Assembly (NCBI GenBank): GCA_905221115.1
Contig: CAJNBX010000003.1
Coordinates: forward strand, 1 to 64,000
Reading direction: 5' to 3'
Source: a bacterium
GTDB taxonomy: Bacteria > Bacillota > Bacilli > Lactobacillales > Streptococcaceae
DNA length: 64,000 nucleotides
Made by a program: the position numbers and the translations under genes. This document shows positions 39,661 to 60,012 of this stretch, one piece after another (the stretch's first letter is position 1; each line of letters starts with the position of its first letter). A model generated the notes under the pieces. That model was not told the origin of the DNA, ran no database searches, and worked only from the letters and a program-made list of their open reading frames with translations.

Positions 39661-39787
39661 CTTTCTCCGTGGTGAAAGTGATGGAACTGATTTATCAGTC
39701 CCATCACAGGGGATTTTTGAGACCCTAGGCTCAAAAATAAGCAATGAAACCATCGGTTTGCTTGCGTCCCTCACCACCTAAGAAAGG
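39661..39787 (-). repeat. Structured intergenic element, copy A (infB-rbfA)
   Basis: Read on the minus strand: P1 CTTTCT/AGAAAG; joining bases TTAG; P2 GTGGTG/CACCAC; then three hairpins. P3 is GCAA-gca-AACC/GGTT-tca-TTGC, P4 is TTTTTGAG/CTCAAAAA with loop CCTAGGGT, and P5 is GTGATGGGACTGAT with its partner. The same fold with different stem sequences occurs at 55338-55470 and 59874-60012. Whether this is a known pneumococcal repeat class such as RUP I cannot tell by eye. Confidence 0.75.
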
Positions 39788-39797
39788 AGCAAAAATC

Positions 39798-42599
39798 TTA
39801 TCGTTTGATTTCTTCCATGACATACGCCTCAATCACATCATCAGTCTTGATATCATTGTAGCCGTCAATCATCAATCCACCTTCACGACCGTTTGTAACT
39901 TCCTTAACGTCATCTTTGTAGTGTTTCAAGCTTGCGAGTTCGCCATCATAGATAACGACACCGTCACGGATAACACGGACTTTAGAGTCACGGGTAACTT
40001 TACCGTTGATAACCATGAATCCACCGATAGTTCCCACTTTAGATACCTTGAAGGTTTCACGGATAACTGCTTCACCGATAACTTTTTCTTCGAATTCTGG
40101 ATCAAGCATCCCTTTCATAGCTTCTTCCATCTCTTCGATAACCTTGTAGATAATGCTGTGAAGACGGATTTCCACATCGTCAGCTTCTGCCTGTTGACGA
40201 GCTTGTGGTGTAGGGCGTACGTTGAAACCAACGATAAAGGCATTTGAAGCTTCGGCAAGGGTCACGTCAGATTCATTGATAGCACCGACCGCTGAGTGGA
40301 CGATGGTAACTTTGACACCTTCTACGTCGATTTTTTGAAGTGAAGCAGAAAGTGCTTCAACAGAACCTTGTACATCGGCCTTGATGATAACGTTAACTGA
40401 TTTGAGTTCACCAGCTTTAAGCGTATCAAAGAGGTTTTCAAGACTGACACGTTGAGTAGCTTGACGTTGTTTCATGAGGGCACGTTTCGCACGCTCTTCA
40501 CCTGCTGCACGCGCAGATTTTTCATCTTCGTAAACGGCAAAGTGGTCACCCGCCATCGGCGCTTCATTCAAACCTGTGATAGAAACTGGTGTTGATGGTC
40601 CAGCAACTTTAACACGACGACCAAGGTCATTGGTCATAGCACGGACACGACCAAAGGTATTTCCGACAACGATAGGGTCTTGGACATTCAAGGTACCTTG
40701 TTGAACAAGAAGGGTTGCGACCGCACCTTTTCCTTTATCCAAGCGCGCTTCGATAACCGTACCGATCGCACGAACTGTTGGGTCTGCCTTGAGTTCTTGG
40801 ATTTCAGCCACAAGAAGGACTGTTTCCAACAATTCTTCGATGTTTTGGTTGAATTTAGCTGAGATTTCAACAAATTCAGAATCTCCGCCCCAAGCTGTTG
40901 ACATAACCCCATGTTCTGCCAATTCACCGATAACGCGTTCTGGGTTGGCACCTGGTTTATCAATCTTGTTAATGGCTACGATGATTGGAACGTTGGCCGC
41001 TTTTGAGTGGTTAATGGCTTCGATAGTCTGAGGCATAACCCCGTCATCTGCCGCTACAACCAAGATAGTAATATCGGTAACAGATGCACCACGCGCACGC
41101 ATAGATGTAAAGGCCGCGTGTCCTGGTGTATCAAGGAAGGTGATCTTCTTGCCATTTTCCACGATTTGGTAGGCACCGATATGCTGAGTGATACCACCTG
41201 CTTCACCTGTCGCAACACGAGAATTACGAAGGGTATCTAGGAGGGTTGTCTTACCATGGTCAACGTGTCCCATGATAGTTACAACTGGTGGACGCTCTAC
41301 CAATTCATCTTCGTTGAGATAACCATCTTCAACAAAGAAACGTTCGATGTCGGCATTATCCACTTCAACCTTTTGTTTGGCTTCGATACCATAATCCACC
41401 ATGAGGAGTTCAATTGTTTCCCCGTCCAAGGATTGGTTTTGTGTGGCCATGACACCCATCATAAAGAGTTTCTTAACGATTTCAGCTGGTTCACGTTTGA
41501 TACGTTTTGCGATTTCCGCAACAGTCATACCATCTGTATATTCAAATTCTGTTGGCAATTCATGGAATTTACGCTCTGTAACAGGTTTTGGAGCCTGATT
41601 ACGGTTGTTCTTATTATTGCCTTTTTTGTTCTTCTTGTTGTTATTCCAGTTACTATTCTTTTGATTTCTCACTTGATTTTGACTACTTCGATTCTTTTGT
41701 TGTTTTCTAGGACCATCTTCTTCGTGATCATAATCGTCACGATTTTTGTCTGGTCGAGCTTGTTTTTTACGACGTGTATCCACTGCAGGTTCTTTTTTCT
41801 CAGGGACGACTTCAACCACTGCTTGAACTTGCTGTGCTTGTTGCGCTTGTTCAGCTAACTTAGCCGCTTCTTCAAAGATTTCCTCTGGTTCCTTGCGTTT
41901 GTTAGCTTGAGCCAAGGCTTCTTTAGCAGCCTGATACTGCTTGAAGCGTTCCTCGCTTGAACGGGCATACTCTGCATTTTGCTCTGCTTTCAATGCTGCC
42001 GCACGGGCTTTAAAGTCAATGCGTGGAGCCGCTTGATTTGGACGCTTGTCCTCTTGTTGACGGCGCTCATTTCCACGATTTTGCTGACCGTGCTGTTTCT
42101 TAGCTTGGTCATTAAAACGGCGATTGTCGCGGTTGCCTTGACCTTGTTTTCCACCATTGCGGCCGTCGTTTTTCTGACGGTTCCCGTTTTGTTGTTGGTC
42201 AAGGTTATTGCCCTTGTTTTGCTTGCGTCGTTCTGCCTGCTCTTTGGCACGGGCTTCACGCTCAGCCTTAAAATTACGGCTTTGCGGTTTAGCTGCTACT
42301 TTTTCTGCCTTAGGAGCGACTGGCTCAGCCGGTTTTGCCTCTTCCTTAGCCACAGCTAGTTTCGCTGGCTCAGATTTCTCGGCTTTCTTTTCTGCACTTG
42401 ATTTTTGTTCTGCAGGTTTTGCTTCTACTTTCGGAGCAACTGCAGACTTAAAGCTGGCAGCGATTTTTGCAGCGACAGCTTCTTCCACACTTGATGAGTG
42501 GCTTTTCACATCCAAGCCCAACTCTTTTGCACGCGCTACAACTTCTTTACTTTCTTTTCCAAGTTCTTTTGCGATTTCGTACAATCTTTTCTTAGACAA
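39798..42599 (-). CDS. infB: Translation initiation factor IF-2
   Basis: A GTPase placing initiator tRNA on the 30S subunit. It has 933 residues. The first 350 or so residues are low-complexity and charged, rich in Ala/Lys/Glu and then Asn/Gln/Arg, after the conserved [20 protein letters not shown]. The G domain carries GHVDHGKTT (G1), [15 protein letters not shown] (G3) and NKIDKP (G4), followed by the beta-barrel domains. Fourth in its operon after ylxQ, with ylxQ 16 bases upstream. The long antisense frames here reflect composition. Confidence 0.98.
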
Positions 42600-42615
42600 A
42601 TCATGTCCTCCTCTT

Positions 42616-57983: not shown

Positions 57984-58009
57984 TTTCGTTTTCTTAACGC
58001 CTCAACATC

Positions 58010-59833
58010 TTACTTTTCCGTAAACTCTCCGTCTACGACGTCATCGCCTGCATTTCCTGTTGCTTGTGCACCTTCTGCTCCTGCTTGAGCTTGTTGGGCT
58101 GCTGCAGCTTGTTCGTAGAGTTTAACAGCAAGGCCTTGAGCTTTTTCGTTCAATGCTTCAAGTTTTGCTTTCATGTCGTCCAAGTTGTTGTCTTCTTGAG
58201 CTTTCTTAAGGTCATCAAGGGCAGCTTGGGCAGCGTCACGTTCTGCGTCGAAACCTTTTCCTTCAGTTTCCTTGATAGTCTTTTCAGTCGCAAAGATTGC
58301 TTGGTCTACTTCATTACGAAGGTCAACTTCTTCTTTACGTTTCTTATCTGCTTCAGCGTTAGCTTCTGCATCTTTCATCATGCGGTCGATTTCTTCGTCA
58401 GTCAAACCTGAGTTAGATTGGATCACAATAGTTTGTTCTTTTTGAGTTCCAAGATCTTTAGCCTTAACAGACACGATACCGTTCTTATCGATATCAAATG
58501 TTACTTCGATTTGAGGAATTCCACGAGGTGCAGCTGGGATATCTGTCAATTGGAAGCGTCCAAGAGTCTTGTTATCTGCTGCCATTGGGCGTTCACCTTG
58601 AAGAACGTGGATATCAACGGCTGGTTGGTTGTCTGCTGCTGTTGAGAAGACTTGTGATTTAGATGTTGGGATTGTTGTGTTACGGTCGATGAGTTTTGTG
58701 AAGACACCACCCATTGTTTCGATACCAAGTGACAATGGTGTTACATCAAGAAGGACAACGTCTTTAACATCACCAGTAATGACACCACCTTGGATCGCAG
58801 CACCCATGGCAACAACTTCATCAGGGTTTACTGATTTGTTTGGTTCTTTACCAGTTTCAGCTTTAACAGCTTCTACAACGGCTGGGATACGAGTTGAACC
58901 ACCAACAAGGATAACTTCGTCGATTTCTGACAAGCTCAAACCTGCATCTGAAAGGGCTTGACGAACTGGAACTTTTGTACGTTCTACAAGGTCACGAGTC
59001 AAATCGTCAAATTTCGCACGAGTCAAAGTCATTTCCAAGTGGAGAGGTCCAGCTTCACCAGCAGTGATGAACGGCAAGCTGATTTGTGTTGAAGTTACAC
59101 CAGAAAGATCTTTCTTCGCTTTTTCAGCTGCATCTTTCAAACGTTGCATTGCCATCTTGTCAGTAGACAAGTCGATACCATTTTCTTTCTTGAATTCTGC
59201 TACCAAGTGGTCGATGATTTTTTGGTCAAAGTCATCACCACCAAGTTTGTTGTCCCCTGCAGTTGACAATACATCGAAGACACCGTCACCCAATTCAAGG
59301 ATAGAGACGTCGAATGTACCACCACCAAGGTCAAATACCAAGATTTTTTCTTCTTTATCAGTCTTGTCCAAACCGTAAGCAAGAGCGGCTGCAGTTGGTT
59401 CGTTGACGATACGTTCTACTTCAAGACCAGCGATTTTACCAGCGTCTTTAGTTGCTTGACGTTGAGCATCGTTGAAGTAAGCTGGAACTGTGATAACTGC
59501 TTTGGTTACTTTTTCACCAAGGTAGTCTTCAGCGTAGCCTTTCAAGTATTGAAGAATCATAGCTGAGATTTCTTGTGGAGTGTATTCTTTTCCATTAGCA
59601 GAAACTTTTTCAGAAGTTCCCATCTTAGATTTGATAGAGATAACTGTATCTGGGTTTGTGACCGCTTGACGTTTCGCAGCGTCACCAACGATGATTTCGC
59701 CGTTTTTGAATGATACTACAGATGGAGTTGTGCGGTTTCCTTCTGGGTTTGCGATGATTTTGCTTTCAGTTCCTTCAAGAACTGCTACTGCTGAGTTTGT
59801 TGTACCTAAGTCAATACCGATAATTTTAGACAT
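58010..59833 (-). CDS. dnaK: Chaperone protein DnaK
   Basis: Hsp70, 607 residues. The ATPase domain opens [20 protein letters not shown], with phosphate motifs [16 protein letters not shown] and [13 protein letters not shown]. The substrate-binding domain includes [14 protein letters not shown], and the C-terminal lid ends in [11 protein letters not shown]. Works with GrpE and DnaJ. It is third in hrcA-grpE-dnaK, with a 260-base gap from grpE containing structured element copy B. Confidence 0.99.
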
Positions 59834-59873
59834 GTGTTTTTCTCCTTAAATTTTAATTCGAATTTTGATTTTT

Positions 59874-60012
59874 TTTGATATTCCCCTTAAGTGGTGGGGA
59901 CGTGAGCAACTCCCTACGGGATTTCATCACTTATTTTTGAGCCTATTGTCTCAAAAATCCCCTGTTTCAGTAGCCAAAGCTACTGAAACTTTCACCACGG
60001 CGGGCAATATCT
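59874..60012. repeat. Structured intergenic element, copy B (grpE-dnaK)
   Basis: Plus-strand reading: P1 GATATT-CCC/GGG-c-AATATC; TTAA; P2 GTGGTG/CACCAC (59891, 59993); P3 GTGA-gca-ACTCCC/GGGATT-tca-TCAC; P4 TTTTTGAG/CTCAAAAA with loop CCTATTGT; P5 GTTTCAGTAGC/GCTACTGAAAC. It is followed by a GCAAG/CTTGC hairpin (60017-60033). It lies inside the grpE-dnaK transcript on the antisense reading of this strand. Confidence 0.75.

What the first reader, a model, noticed from the sequence alone, without database searches (positions are those of the whole stretch)
39661..60012. Three-copy structured intergenic element with compensatory changes in every stem
Copies at 39661-39787 (A, minus reading), 59874-60012 (B) and 55338-55470 (C) share one layout: P1, TTAA/TTAG, P2, GGGAC/GGAC, then three hairpins P3-P4-P5, then TTT, P2', GGMG, P1'. 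Stems differ but stay paired: P2 GTGGTG/CACCAC in A and B, GTAATG/CATTAC in C; P1 CTTTCT/AGAAAG, GATATTCCC/GGGcAATATC, GACTTTCC/GGAAAGTC; P3 outer GCAA/TTGC, GTGA/TCAC, GGTA/TACC with a conserved internal loop GCR/YCA; P4 TTTTTGAG or ACTTTGAG with a CCTA-GT loop. Simple mobile repeats rarely show this. It could be a structured RNA family, or a known pneumococcal repeat class (RUP or SPRITE) that is under structural selection. Placement between infB-rbfA and grpE-dnaK may affect expression.
Basis: seen in the sequence. Interest (0 to 1): 0.72.

Follow-up and report, generated by a model that had tools for sequence, protein, structure and literature searches.

The report
Terminator-hopping mini-transposon of streptococci
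The three look-alike folded sequences belong to a large family of small jumping DNA elements of streptococci that land in transcription terminators, copy the terminator to both sides of themselves, and keep a cloverleaf of self-complementary arms whose letters change mostly in matching pairs.

Summary
In detail: A, B and C share one cloverleaf core (~138 bp) with compensatory changes in every helix. It is not RUP or SPRITE, and not simply a one-strand RNA family. 255 of 284 Streptococcus genomes match, up to 49 matches in one. In recently spread copies the core lies in a ~250-bp unit with imperfect terminal repeats CAGAnTGnAGACAAA. The unit sits at intrinsic terminators, and the whole terminator hairpin is duplicated on both sides; for the one flank tested a sister genome has a hairpin-only empty site. 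The ends are those of streptococcal IS1182 insertion sequences, which duplicate hairpins likewise; in genome G109 three IS1182 copies carry the core between left end and transposase gene. So the units are best read as MITEs derived from a core-bearing IS1182. Copy C is probably such an insertion (hairpins on both sides, later split by a BOX). B lies in the dnaK leader: 19 of 30 fetched leaders have a copy, all in one orientation. A follows infB, with relatives there. Pairing is kept as Watson-Crick on both strands (GT 122, AC 153; RNase P control GT 381, AC 3), pointing to DNA hairpins or two-strand selection. The core's job is unproved.

The parts
39655..39792 (-). Copy A, cloverleaf core between infB and rbfA; P1 TTGCTcCTTTCT/AGAAAGaAGCAG; no terminal repeats or duplicated hairpin found
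   Evidence: 129.5 bits; seven copies (A included) with the same infB-end flank and orientation
55335..55473 (+). Copy C, cloverleaf core of a probable terminator-inserted unit between a 95-aa ORF and dnaJ (convergent)
   Evidence: 131.2 bits
55296..55319 (+). First of the two like terminator hairpins flanking unit C (AAAAAGAGCC-CAAC-GGCTCTTTTT; the match to the second runs 55296-55326)
   Evidence: score 16; 1 of 229 swapped-flank controls reached 13; coordinates checked
55711..55734 (+). Second hairpin (AAAAAGAGCC-ACTC-GGCTCTTTTT; match 55711-55741), next to the end of dnaJ
   Evidence: same locus type in G001 (L081) has the two hairpins 160 bp closer together
55488..55640 (+). BOX-type repeat nested in the tail of unit C (TATACTC...GAGTATTA)
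   Evidence: BOX identity from a recalled motif; the ~160-bp length difference to L081 supports a later insertion
59876..60012 (+). Copy B, cloverleaf core in the grpE-dnaK gap, 43 bases before the dnaK start; its reader strand is antisense to dnaK
   Evidence: 148.4 bits; same position and orientation in 19 of 30 fetched dnaK upstream regions
60018..60039 (+). Hairpin GCAAGCC-TCC-GGCTTGC plus T run directly 3' of copy B
   Evidence: read, checked; like hairpins seen in several dnaK leaders printed

Best explanation
A, B and C are copies of the structured core of a genus-wide streptococcal MITE family that is mobilised by IS1182-family transposases. The full unit is ~250 bp: left terminal repeat (CAGATTGAAGACAAAGTC-like), the cloverleaf core P1-P5, a 3' tail with a short hairpin, right terminal repeat (TTTGTCTACANTCTG-like). 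It derives by internal deletion from an IS1182 that carries the core between its left end and its transposase gene. Proposed mechanism: the DDE transposase acts in trans on the ends; the target is an intrinsic-terminator hairpin, extruded or single-stranded; strand transfer at the 5' foot of the hairpin on each strand, then gap repair, leaves one complete terminator on each side, so the genes on both sides keep their terminator and the insertion is nearly silent. SHOWN: hairpin duplications, shared ends, one empty site, an IS1182 with the core. INFERRED: mobilisation in trans, the strand-transfer points, the deletion origin. The core's helices are kept as nearly perfect Watson-Crick inverted repeats on both strands, so I think the core works (or is corrected) as DNA, most likely as extruded hairpins at the transposon end. 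At dnaK, and probably after infB, single copies without ends have been inherited and kept in fixed orientation, which suggests exaptation in the untranslated region.
For: Duplicated hairpins: best direct repeat between 5' and 3' flank scores >=13 in 53 of 229 unique copies (one of the 229 had no usable flank), against 1 of 229 with flanks swapped between copies; 44 of the 53 meet the hairpin criterion (>=5 pairs), 25 of these 44 lie between convergent genes, against 38 of the other 185. Ends at those duplications: of 43 (the window's C left out of the 44), 36 have >=10 of 13 matches to CAGAnTGnAGACAAA at the left end and 33 at the right; 11 of 2000 random stretches do. Unit length 218-390, 30 of 43 within 247-263; duplicated stretch 14-33 bp. 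Empty site (one insertion tested): the joined flanks of the G178 copy behind a gene whose end I recognised from memory as greA-like run through G176 in one piece, 467 of 480 columns identical, with a single hairpin. Partner: 13 of 28 testable IS1182 loci (30 fetched, 2 too short) are 1529-1572 bp, end in CAGAnnGnAGACAAA and have a duplicated 21-29-bp hairpin, identical in 10 and with 1-2 differences in 3; three further IS copies agree (L427 and L430 exact, L426 one difference). Missing link: in G109 three IS1182 copies (1682-1694 bp; transposase of L337 scores 442.9 bits with NF033551) carry the core between left end and transposase; the only other core match found in that genome is at dnaK. 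DNA-level pairing: 216 unique copies, two of 51 columns left out: WC 9980, GT 122, AC 153, other 238; RNase P, 30 genomes: WC 2530, GT 381, AC 3, other 12. Fixed orientation at dnaK: 19 of 19 copies among 30 fetched loci.
Against: 176 of 229 copies show no duplicated flank by this test, and A and B have neither recognisable ends nor duplications, so their descent from the mobile unit is inferred from the shared core. C's ends are worn, its two hairpins differ in the loop, and AAAAAGAGCC/GGCTCTTTTT is a common terminator type here, so C's duplication is less sure than those in G203. The core was found in only one of the IS1182 types examined (1 of 31 IS loci; three copies, all in G109), so the direction - IS acquired the core, or core came from the IS - is open; in L337 itself the two flanking hairpins share the stem but not the loop. 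In the Lactobacillales genome G397 P1 is lengthened by copy-specific arms, and none of the 30 copies tested there meets the hairpin-duplication criterion, which the model does not explain.
Confidence: 0.8

Rival explanations
1. A one-strand structured RNA family (cis-regulatory leader or sRNA), e.g. a dnaK leader element, that was secondarily picked up by a transposon.
Confidence: 0.2
2. The covariation is not selected but produced: template switching during replication turns imperfect inverted repeats into perfect ones, copying one arm onto the other.
For: Nearly pure Watson-Crick pairing, strand symmetry, and P5 arms that differ completely between subfamilies yet are near-perfect; quasipalindrome correction itself is recalled textbook knowledge.
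Against: P1 and P2 arms lie about 100 bases apart; junction and loop letters (CTTAA, GGAC, the GC/CA internal loop, CCnnnnGT) are largely conserved too, which arm correction does not explain.
Confidence: 0.2
3. A bidirectional transcription insulator: folded in transcripts of either strand it blocks read-through into the transposase gene or neighbouring genes; host copies serve as terminators or mRNA-end protectors.
For: Two-strand pairing; position between left end and a transposase promoter motif (recalled) in the G109 IS, just behind an end that folds as a terminator-like hairpin, as do all eight IS1182 left ends folded (-18.5 to -23.3 kcal/mol for 62 bases); mobile copies enriched between convergent genes.
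Against: B sits inside the grpE-dnaK operon without an obvious need for termination; no transcript data could be examined.
Confidence: 0.25
4. A member of the known pneumococcal repeats RUP, SPRITE or BOX.
For: Same species group, intergenic, hairpin-rich; a BOX lies inside copy C.
Against: GC, size, architecture and host range differ from RUP and SPRITE; a BOX is seen as a separate insertion in C.
Confidence: 0.03

Closest known systems
IS1272 / TnSha1 (IS1182 family) of staphylococci, PMC4923244 and PMC5678879 (passages read)
   Same: IS1182-family element that targets inverted-repeat or terminator hairpins with little sequence consensus
   Different: IS1272 replaces or partly deletes the hairpin and makes no target duplication; the streptococcal IS1182 and these units duplicate the entire hairpin, which the passages of PMC5678879 give only as a possible 'pathway b'. 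A search for 'MITE' in PMC5678879 found nothing
Prokaryotic MITEs, e.g. RUP of pneumococcus (PMC3049150, PMC10969869; passages)
   Same: short non-autonomous units with terminal inverted repeats and target duplications, thought to be mobilised by an IS, strong predicted secondary structure
   Different: target is a ~20-30-bp hairpin duplicated whole; a conserved multi-branched core with compensatory change; genus-wide spread
REP/REPIN elements and their transposases (recalled; search listings only, PMC2817692, PMC3116915)
   Same: palindromic, intergenic, structural conservation
   Different: these use single-strand Y1 transposases (recalled); here the partner is a DDE transposase of the IS1182 family
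Rfam RF02616 SSRC8_2 (S. pyogenes sRNA 8)
   Different: a 281-position sRNA model of which 61 and 105 positions match B and C; not described as a repeat in the passages read

Membership tests
MITE mobilised by IS1182 family | terminal inverted repeats matching those of an autonomous IS | tested here: met
   for the family: 36 of 43 left and 33 of 43 right ends >=10/13 to the IS1182 end consensus, 11 of 2000 random stretches. For the window: no 15-mer within 2 mismatches of either end pattern in the whole window, so not met by A and B, worn in C
MITE mobilised by IS1182 family | target duplication of the same kind as the IS makes | tested here: met
   53 of 229 copies against 1 of 229 control; 13 of 28 IS1182 loci; in the window only C
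MITE mobilised by IS1182 family | no transposase gene of its own, short, multicopy | tested here: met
   unit length 218-390, so no room for the ~1.3-kb gene; 11-49 core matches in six genomes searched at depth
MITE mobilised by IS1182 family | empty site in a close relative | tested here: met
   one flank tested, one empty site found: G176 against G178
MITE mobilised by IS1182 family | movement by the IS1182 transposase | not testable with these tools
   needs a transposition assay
One-strand structured RNA family | pairs kept by G-U on the transcribed strand, with A-C avoided | tested here: not met
   GT 122, AC 153; control RNase P GT 381, AC 3; the dnaK subset leans weakly to RNA
One-strand structured RNA family | match to a curated RNA family | tested here: inconclusive
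   no gathering-level match for the copies; sub-threshold match of B and C to SSRC8_2 (copy A not searched at that threshold)
RUP | ~107 bp, 27.5% GC | tested here: not met
   core ~138 bp, 44-46% GC; published HMM not available here
SPRITE | 18-bp duplex followed by a U-rich tract, 28.1% GC, AAAA/TTTT ends | tested here: not met
   multi-branched cloverleaf, 44-46% GC; definition from PMC3049150 passages
S. suis boxE/boxF repeats | 115- and 133-nt modules bracketing boxB | not tested
   sequences not available in the text read

The most novel reading that the evidence does not exclude
The cloverleaf is a functional DNA fold: a multi-branched hairpin structure of the transposon end, extruded as cruciform or single strand and read by a transposase that also recognises hairpins as targets. 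Its helices therefore covary like an RNA but almost without G-U, making this a family whose covariation is evidence for selected DNA, not RNA, structure; host copies at dnaK and infB are exapted from it.
Probability: 0.3. Interest if true: 0.82.

Novelty: new variant of a known kind. Interest (0 to 1): 0.64.

Why it matters
It names a repeat family found in most streptococcal genomes searched that the published pneumococcal repeat classes do not cover and that Rfam holds only as a fragment of one sRNA. It documents in nature a mode of transposition (whole-hairpin duplication) that the papers I read give only as a possibility for hairpin-targeting IS1182 elements, and suggests how it can be harmless: both neighbours keep a terminator. 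It also gives a worked case in which strong covariation is not by itself evidence for a one-strand RNA; the G-U against A-C count is a simple test that other 'structured intergenic element' finds could use. Fixed-orientation copies in the dnaK leader make a possible role in heat-shock operon expression directly testable.

Tried and rejected
RUP/SPRITE identity: rejected on size, GC, architecture and host range. Stem-loop families of PMC2267715 (passages): for S. pneumoniae the table lists BOX, RUP and the genic 45-bp Stre-1; none fits. Rfam at gathering level: only a tRNA at the window edge. Riboswitch-like reading: rejected as the main explanation because A and B lie in opposite orientation to their mRNAs. 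Searching the terminator string in the G176 locus by exact match failed because it differs at a few bases; the BLAST alignment showed the single hairpin. The 17 of 30 IS1182 loci without a counted hairpin duplication: 2 too short; 15 without a qualifying repeat in the 450 bases tested, 8 of these from IS1182 types with a longer match (1491-1542 bp), and L337 and L350 with the right ends but a worn or short repeat. Three of eight later stretches (L431, L432, L433) proved to be re-fetches of L341, L339 and L340 and are not counted again; L428 and L429 gave no ends. Literature for prior description; nothing in these listings or in the passages I read describes this family, but only open-licence papers are held and most listed papers were not opened.
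Full report
WHAT IS THERE. The three copies read as described. All six strands tested fold better than every one of 200 shuffles. A covariance model of 13 copies (R1) finds only these three places in the window, plus the opposite strands of A and B at low score.

HOW WIDESPREAD. R1 matches at E<=0.01 in 255 of 284 genomes of the window's genus. 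In an even draw of 295 genomes of the order, 46 match at E<=0.001: 43 of this genus and three others, 3 of 74 genera in all. Six genomes searched at depth have 11, 21, 25, 37, 49 and 49 matches. Named records with a copy include S. oralis, S. mitis, S. parasanguinis, S. infantis, S. australis, S. ovis, S. henryi, S. hyovaginalis, S. gallolyticus and, outside the genus, Granulicatella elegans.

COVARIATION. On 82 distinct copies from named genomes 36 of 51 pairs change on both sides and the score exceeds all 500 shuffles and all slid versions. This is not an artefact of three sequences.

RNA OR DNA? If one RNA strand were selected, G-U should be frequent and A-C rare. Over 216 unique copies (235 non-overlapping hits out of 250 aligned rows; identical sequences once) and 49 of 51 pairs, I count Watson-Crick 9980, GT 122, AC 153, other 238, gap 91. 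The control, RNase P from 30 genomes of the genus on its RNAalifold consensus, gives WC 2530, GT 381, AC 3, other 12, gap 14. The two left-out positions are the C-T mismatch in P3 and the P2b end pair. The 44 unique dnaK-leader copies, all 44 with the dnaK start 29-150 bases away, have GT 14 and AC 28 without these positions (counted), a weak lean towards the dnaK-sense RNA. Overall the arms behave as DNA inverted repeats.

MOBILITY. Copies from G203 are nearly identical well beyond the core, and flank inspection showed the same hairpin on both sides of the larger unit. Tested over 229 unique copies: 53 have a flank repeat of score >=13 (one copy had no usable flank), 1 of 229 with swapped flanks. 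44 of the 53 meet the hairpin criterion; gene contexts of these 44: 25 convergent, 9 and 8 tandem, 1 divergent, 1 edge; of the other 185, 38 are convergent (ORFs called by a simple script). At 43 of the 44 (the window left out) the sequence next to the duplicated hairpin fits CAGAnTGnAGACAAA with >=10 of 13 in 36 left and 33 right ends; 11 of 2000 random stretches do.

EMPTY SITE. I tested one insertion (L233, G178). Its joined flanks align in one piece with G176 (467 of 480 columns identical), with a single hairpin; G178 and G240 are split there.

PARTNER. A 15-base end without a core in G203 led to an ORF that is an IS1182 transposase (NF033551, 368.9 bits over a cut-off of 270). A genus survey found IS1182 matches in 51 of 98 genomes at E<=1e-20, over the family cut-off in 35. 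Of 30 loci fetched, 28 could be tested; 13 show ends CAGAnnGnAGACAAA and a duplicated 21-29-bp hairpin (10 identical, 3 with 1-2 differences), IS length 1529-1572. Of eight more stretches, three repeat loci already counted, two gave no ends, and three are new copies that agree: L427 and L430 exact, L426 with one difference. R1 over 31 IS loci found one core, in L337 of G109, between left end and transposase. A depth search of G109 gave four matches: three directly upstream of IS1182 genes and one next to the dnaK start. The three core-bearing IS are 1682, 1691 and 1694 bp; flanking hairpins are identical in L427, differ at one base in L426, and share only the stem in L337. MITE left end, core and right end lie in the same order and polarity as in this IS. 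I therefore read the units as internal deletions of such an IS.

THE WINDOW'S COPIES. C: AAAAAGAGCCCAACGGCTCTTTTT at 55296-55319 and AAAAAGAGCCACTCGGCTCTTTTT at 55711-55734, after the 95-aa ORF and before the end of dnaJ; ends are worn; in G001 (L081) the same arrangement is 160 bp shorter, about the size of the BOX-like repeat at 55488-55640 in the window. The loops differ and this terminator type is common, so the duplication is likely rather than certain. B: grpE-dnaK gap. Of 30 dnaK upstream regions fetched (those the tool returned first; 271 of 279 genomes had the start pattern), 19 carry the core, all 19 in the orientation of B; the sequences differ at P1, P2, P3 and P5 with pairing kept. 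The weakest of the 19 has 33.2 bits. A: directly after infB; seven copies, the window included, share that flank, orientation and P1. A and B have no recognisable ends, so they are core-only copies; inheritance in place is the simplest reading.

MECHANISM. Inferred chain: IS1182 DDE transposase binds the ends in trans; target is a terminator hairpin; joining at the 5' foot on each strand and repair duplicates it, the route that PMC5678879 draws as pathway b (passages). Consequence: each neighbour keeps a terminator. Eight IS1182 left ends folded (62 bases each) form a terminator-like hairpin just inside the repeat, -18.5 to -23.3 kcal/mol, as expected for an element that lives behind genes. 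What the core adds is unknown; its place at the left end, before a transposase promoter motif (recalled consensus, sequence), fits either an end structure for transposition or a two-way transcription block.

WHAT IS NEW. Hairpin targeting by IS1182 relatives is known. Duplication of the whole hairpin, MITEs of this family, the covarying core and its kept copies at dnaK and infB did not appear in the listings of my ten paper searches or in the passages read. Rfam's SSRC8_2 holds a piece of one copy; that S. pyogenes RNA was seen on Northern blots, so at least one copy is probably transcribed.

Noticed in passing
L301, L310, L315, L325, L328, L329: ~130 bases before the dnaK start: Another shared block directly at the dnaK ATG (GAAAGGA(A/T)TTGAAC ... 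CGTTCTTGGTATC ... ATG) in six of the 30 dnaK upstream regions; looks like a separate inserted or structured element.
   Followed up: no
G397 copies, L261-L280, L076, L082, L087, L093, L099: In this Lactobacillales genome outside the family of Streptococcus (49 matches in 1.9 Mb) P1 is lengthened in many copies by copy-specific arms of ~8-14 bp followed by T-rich sequence, as if each copy sat in the loop of a different terminator; copies also occur in close clusters.
   Followed up: partly
window 55488-55640: BOX-type repeat nested in the tail of unit C, absent from the corresponding place in G001; BOX identified from a recalled motif.
   Followed up: partly
IS1182 left ends in L293, L337, L426, L427, L430, L431, L432, L433: Just inside the left terminal repeat these IS carry a terminator-like hairpin with T run, probably shielding the transposase gene from read-through.
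   Followed up: partly
L293:359-1546: IS1182 transposase frame of G203 ends at an internal stop; the hairpins beside its two ends differ in sequence.
   Followed up: no
Rfam RF02616: SSRC8_2 appears to include one copy of this repeat, so hits of that model in other streptococci may be repeats rather than sRNA orthologues.
   Followed up: partly
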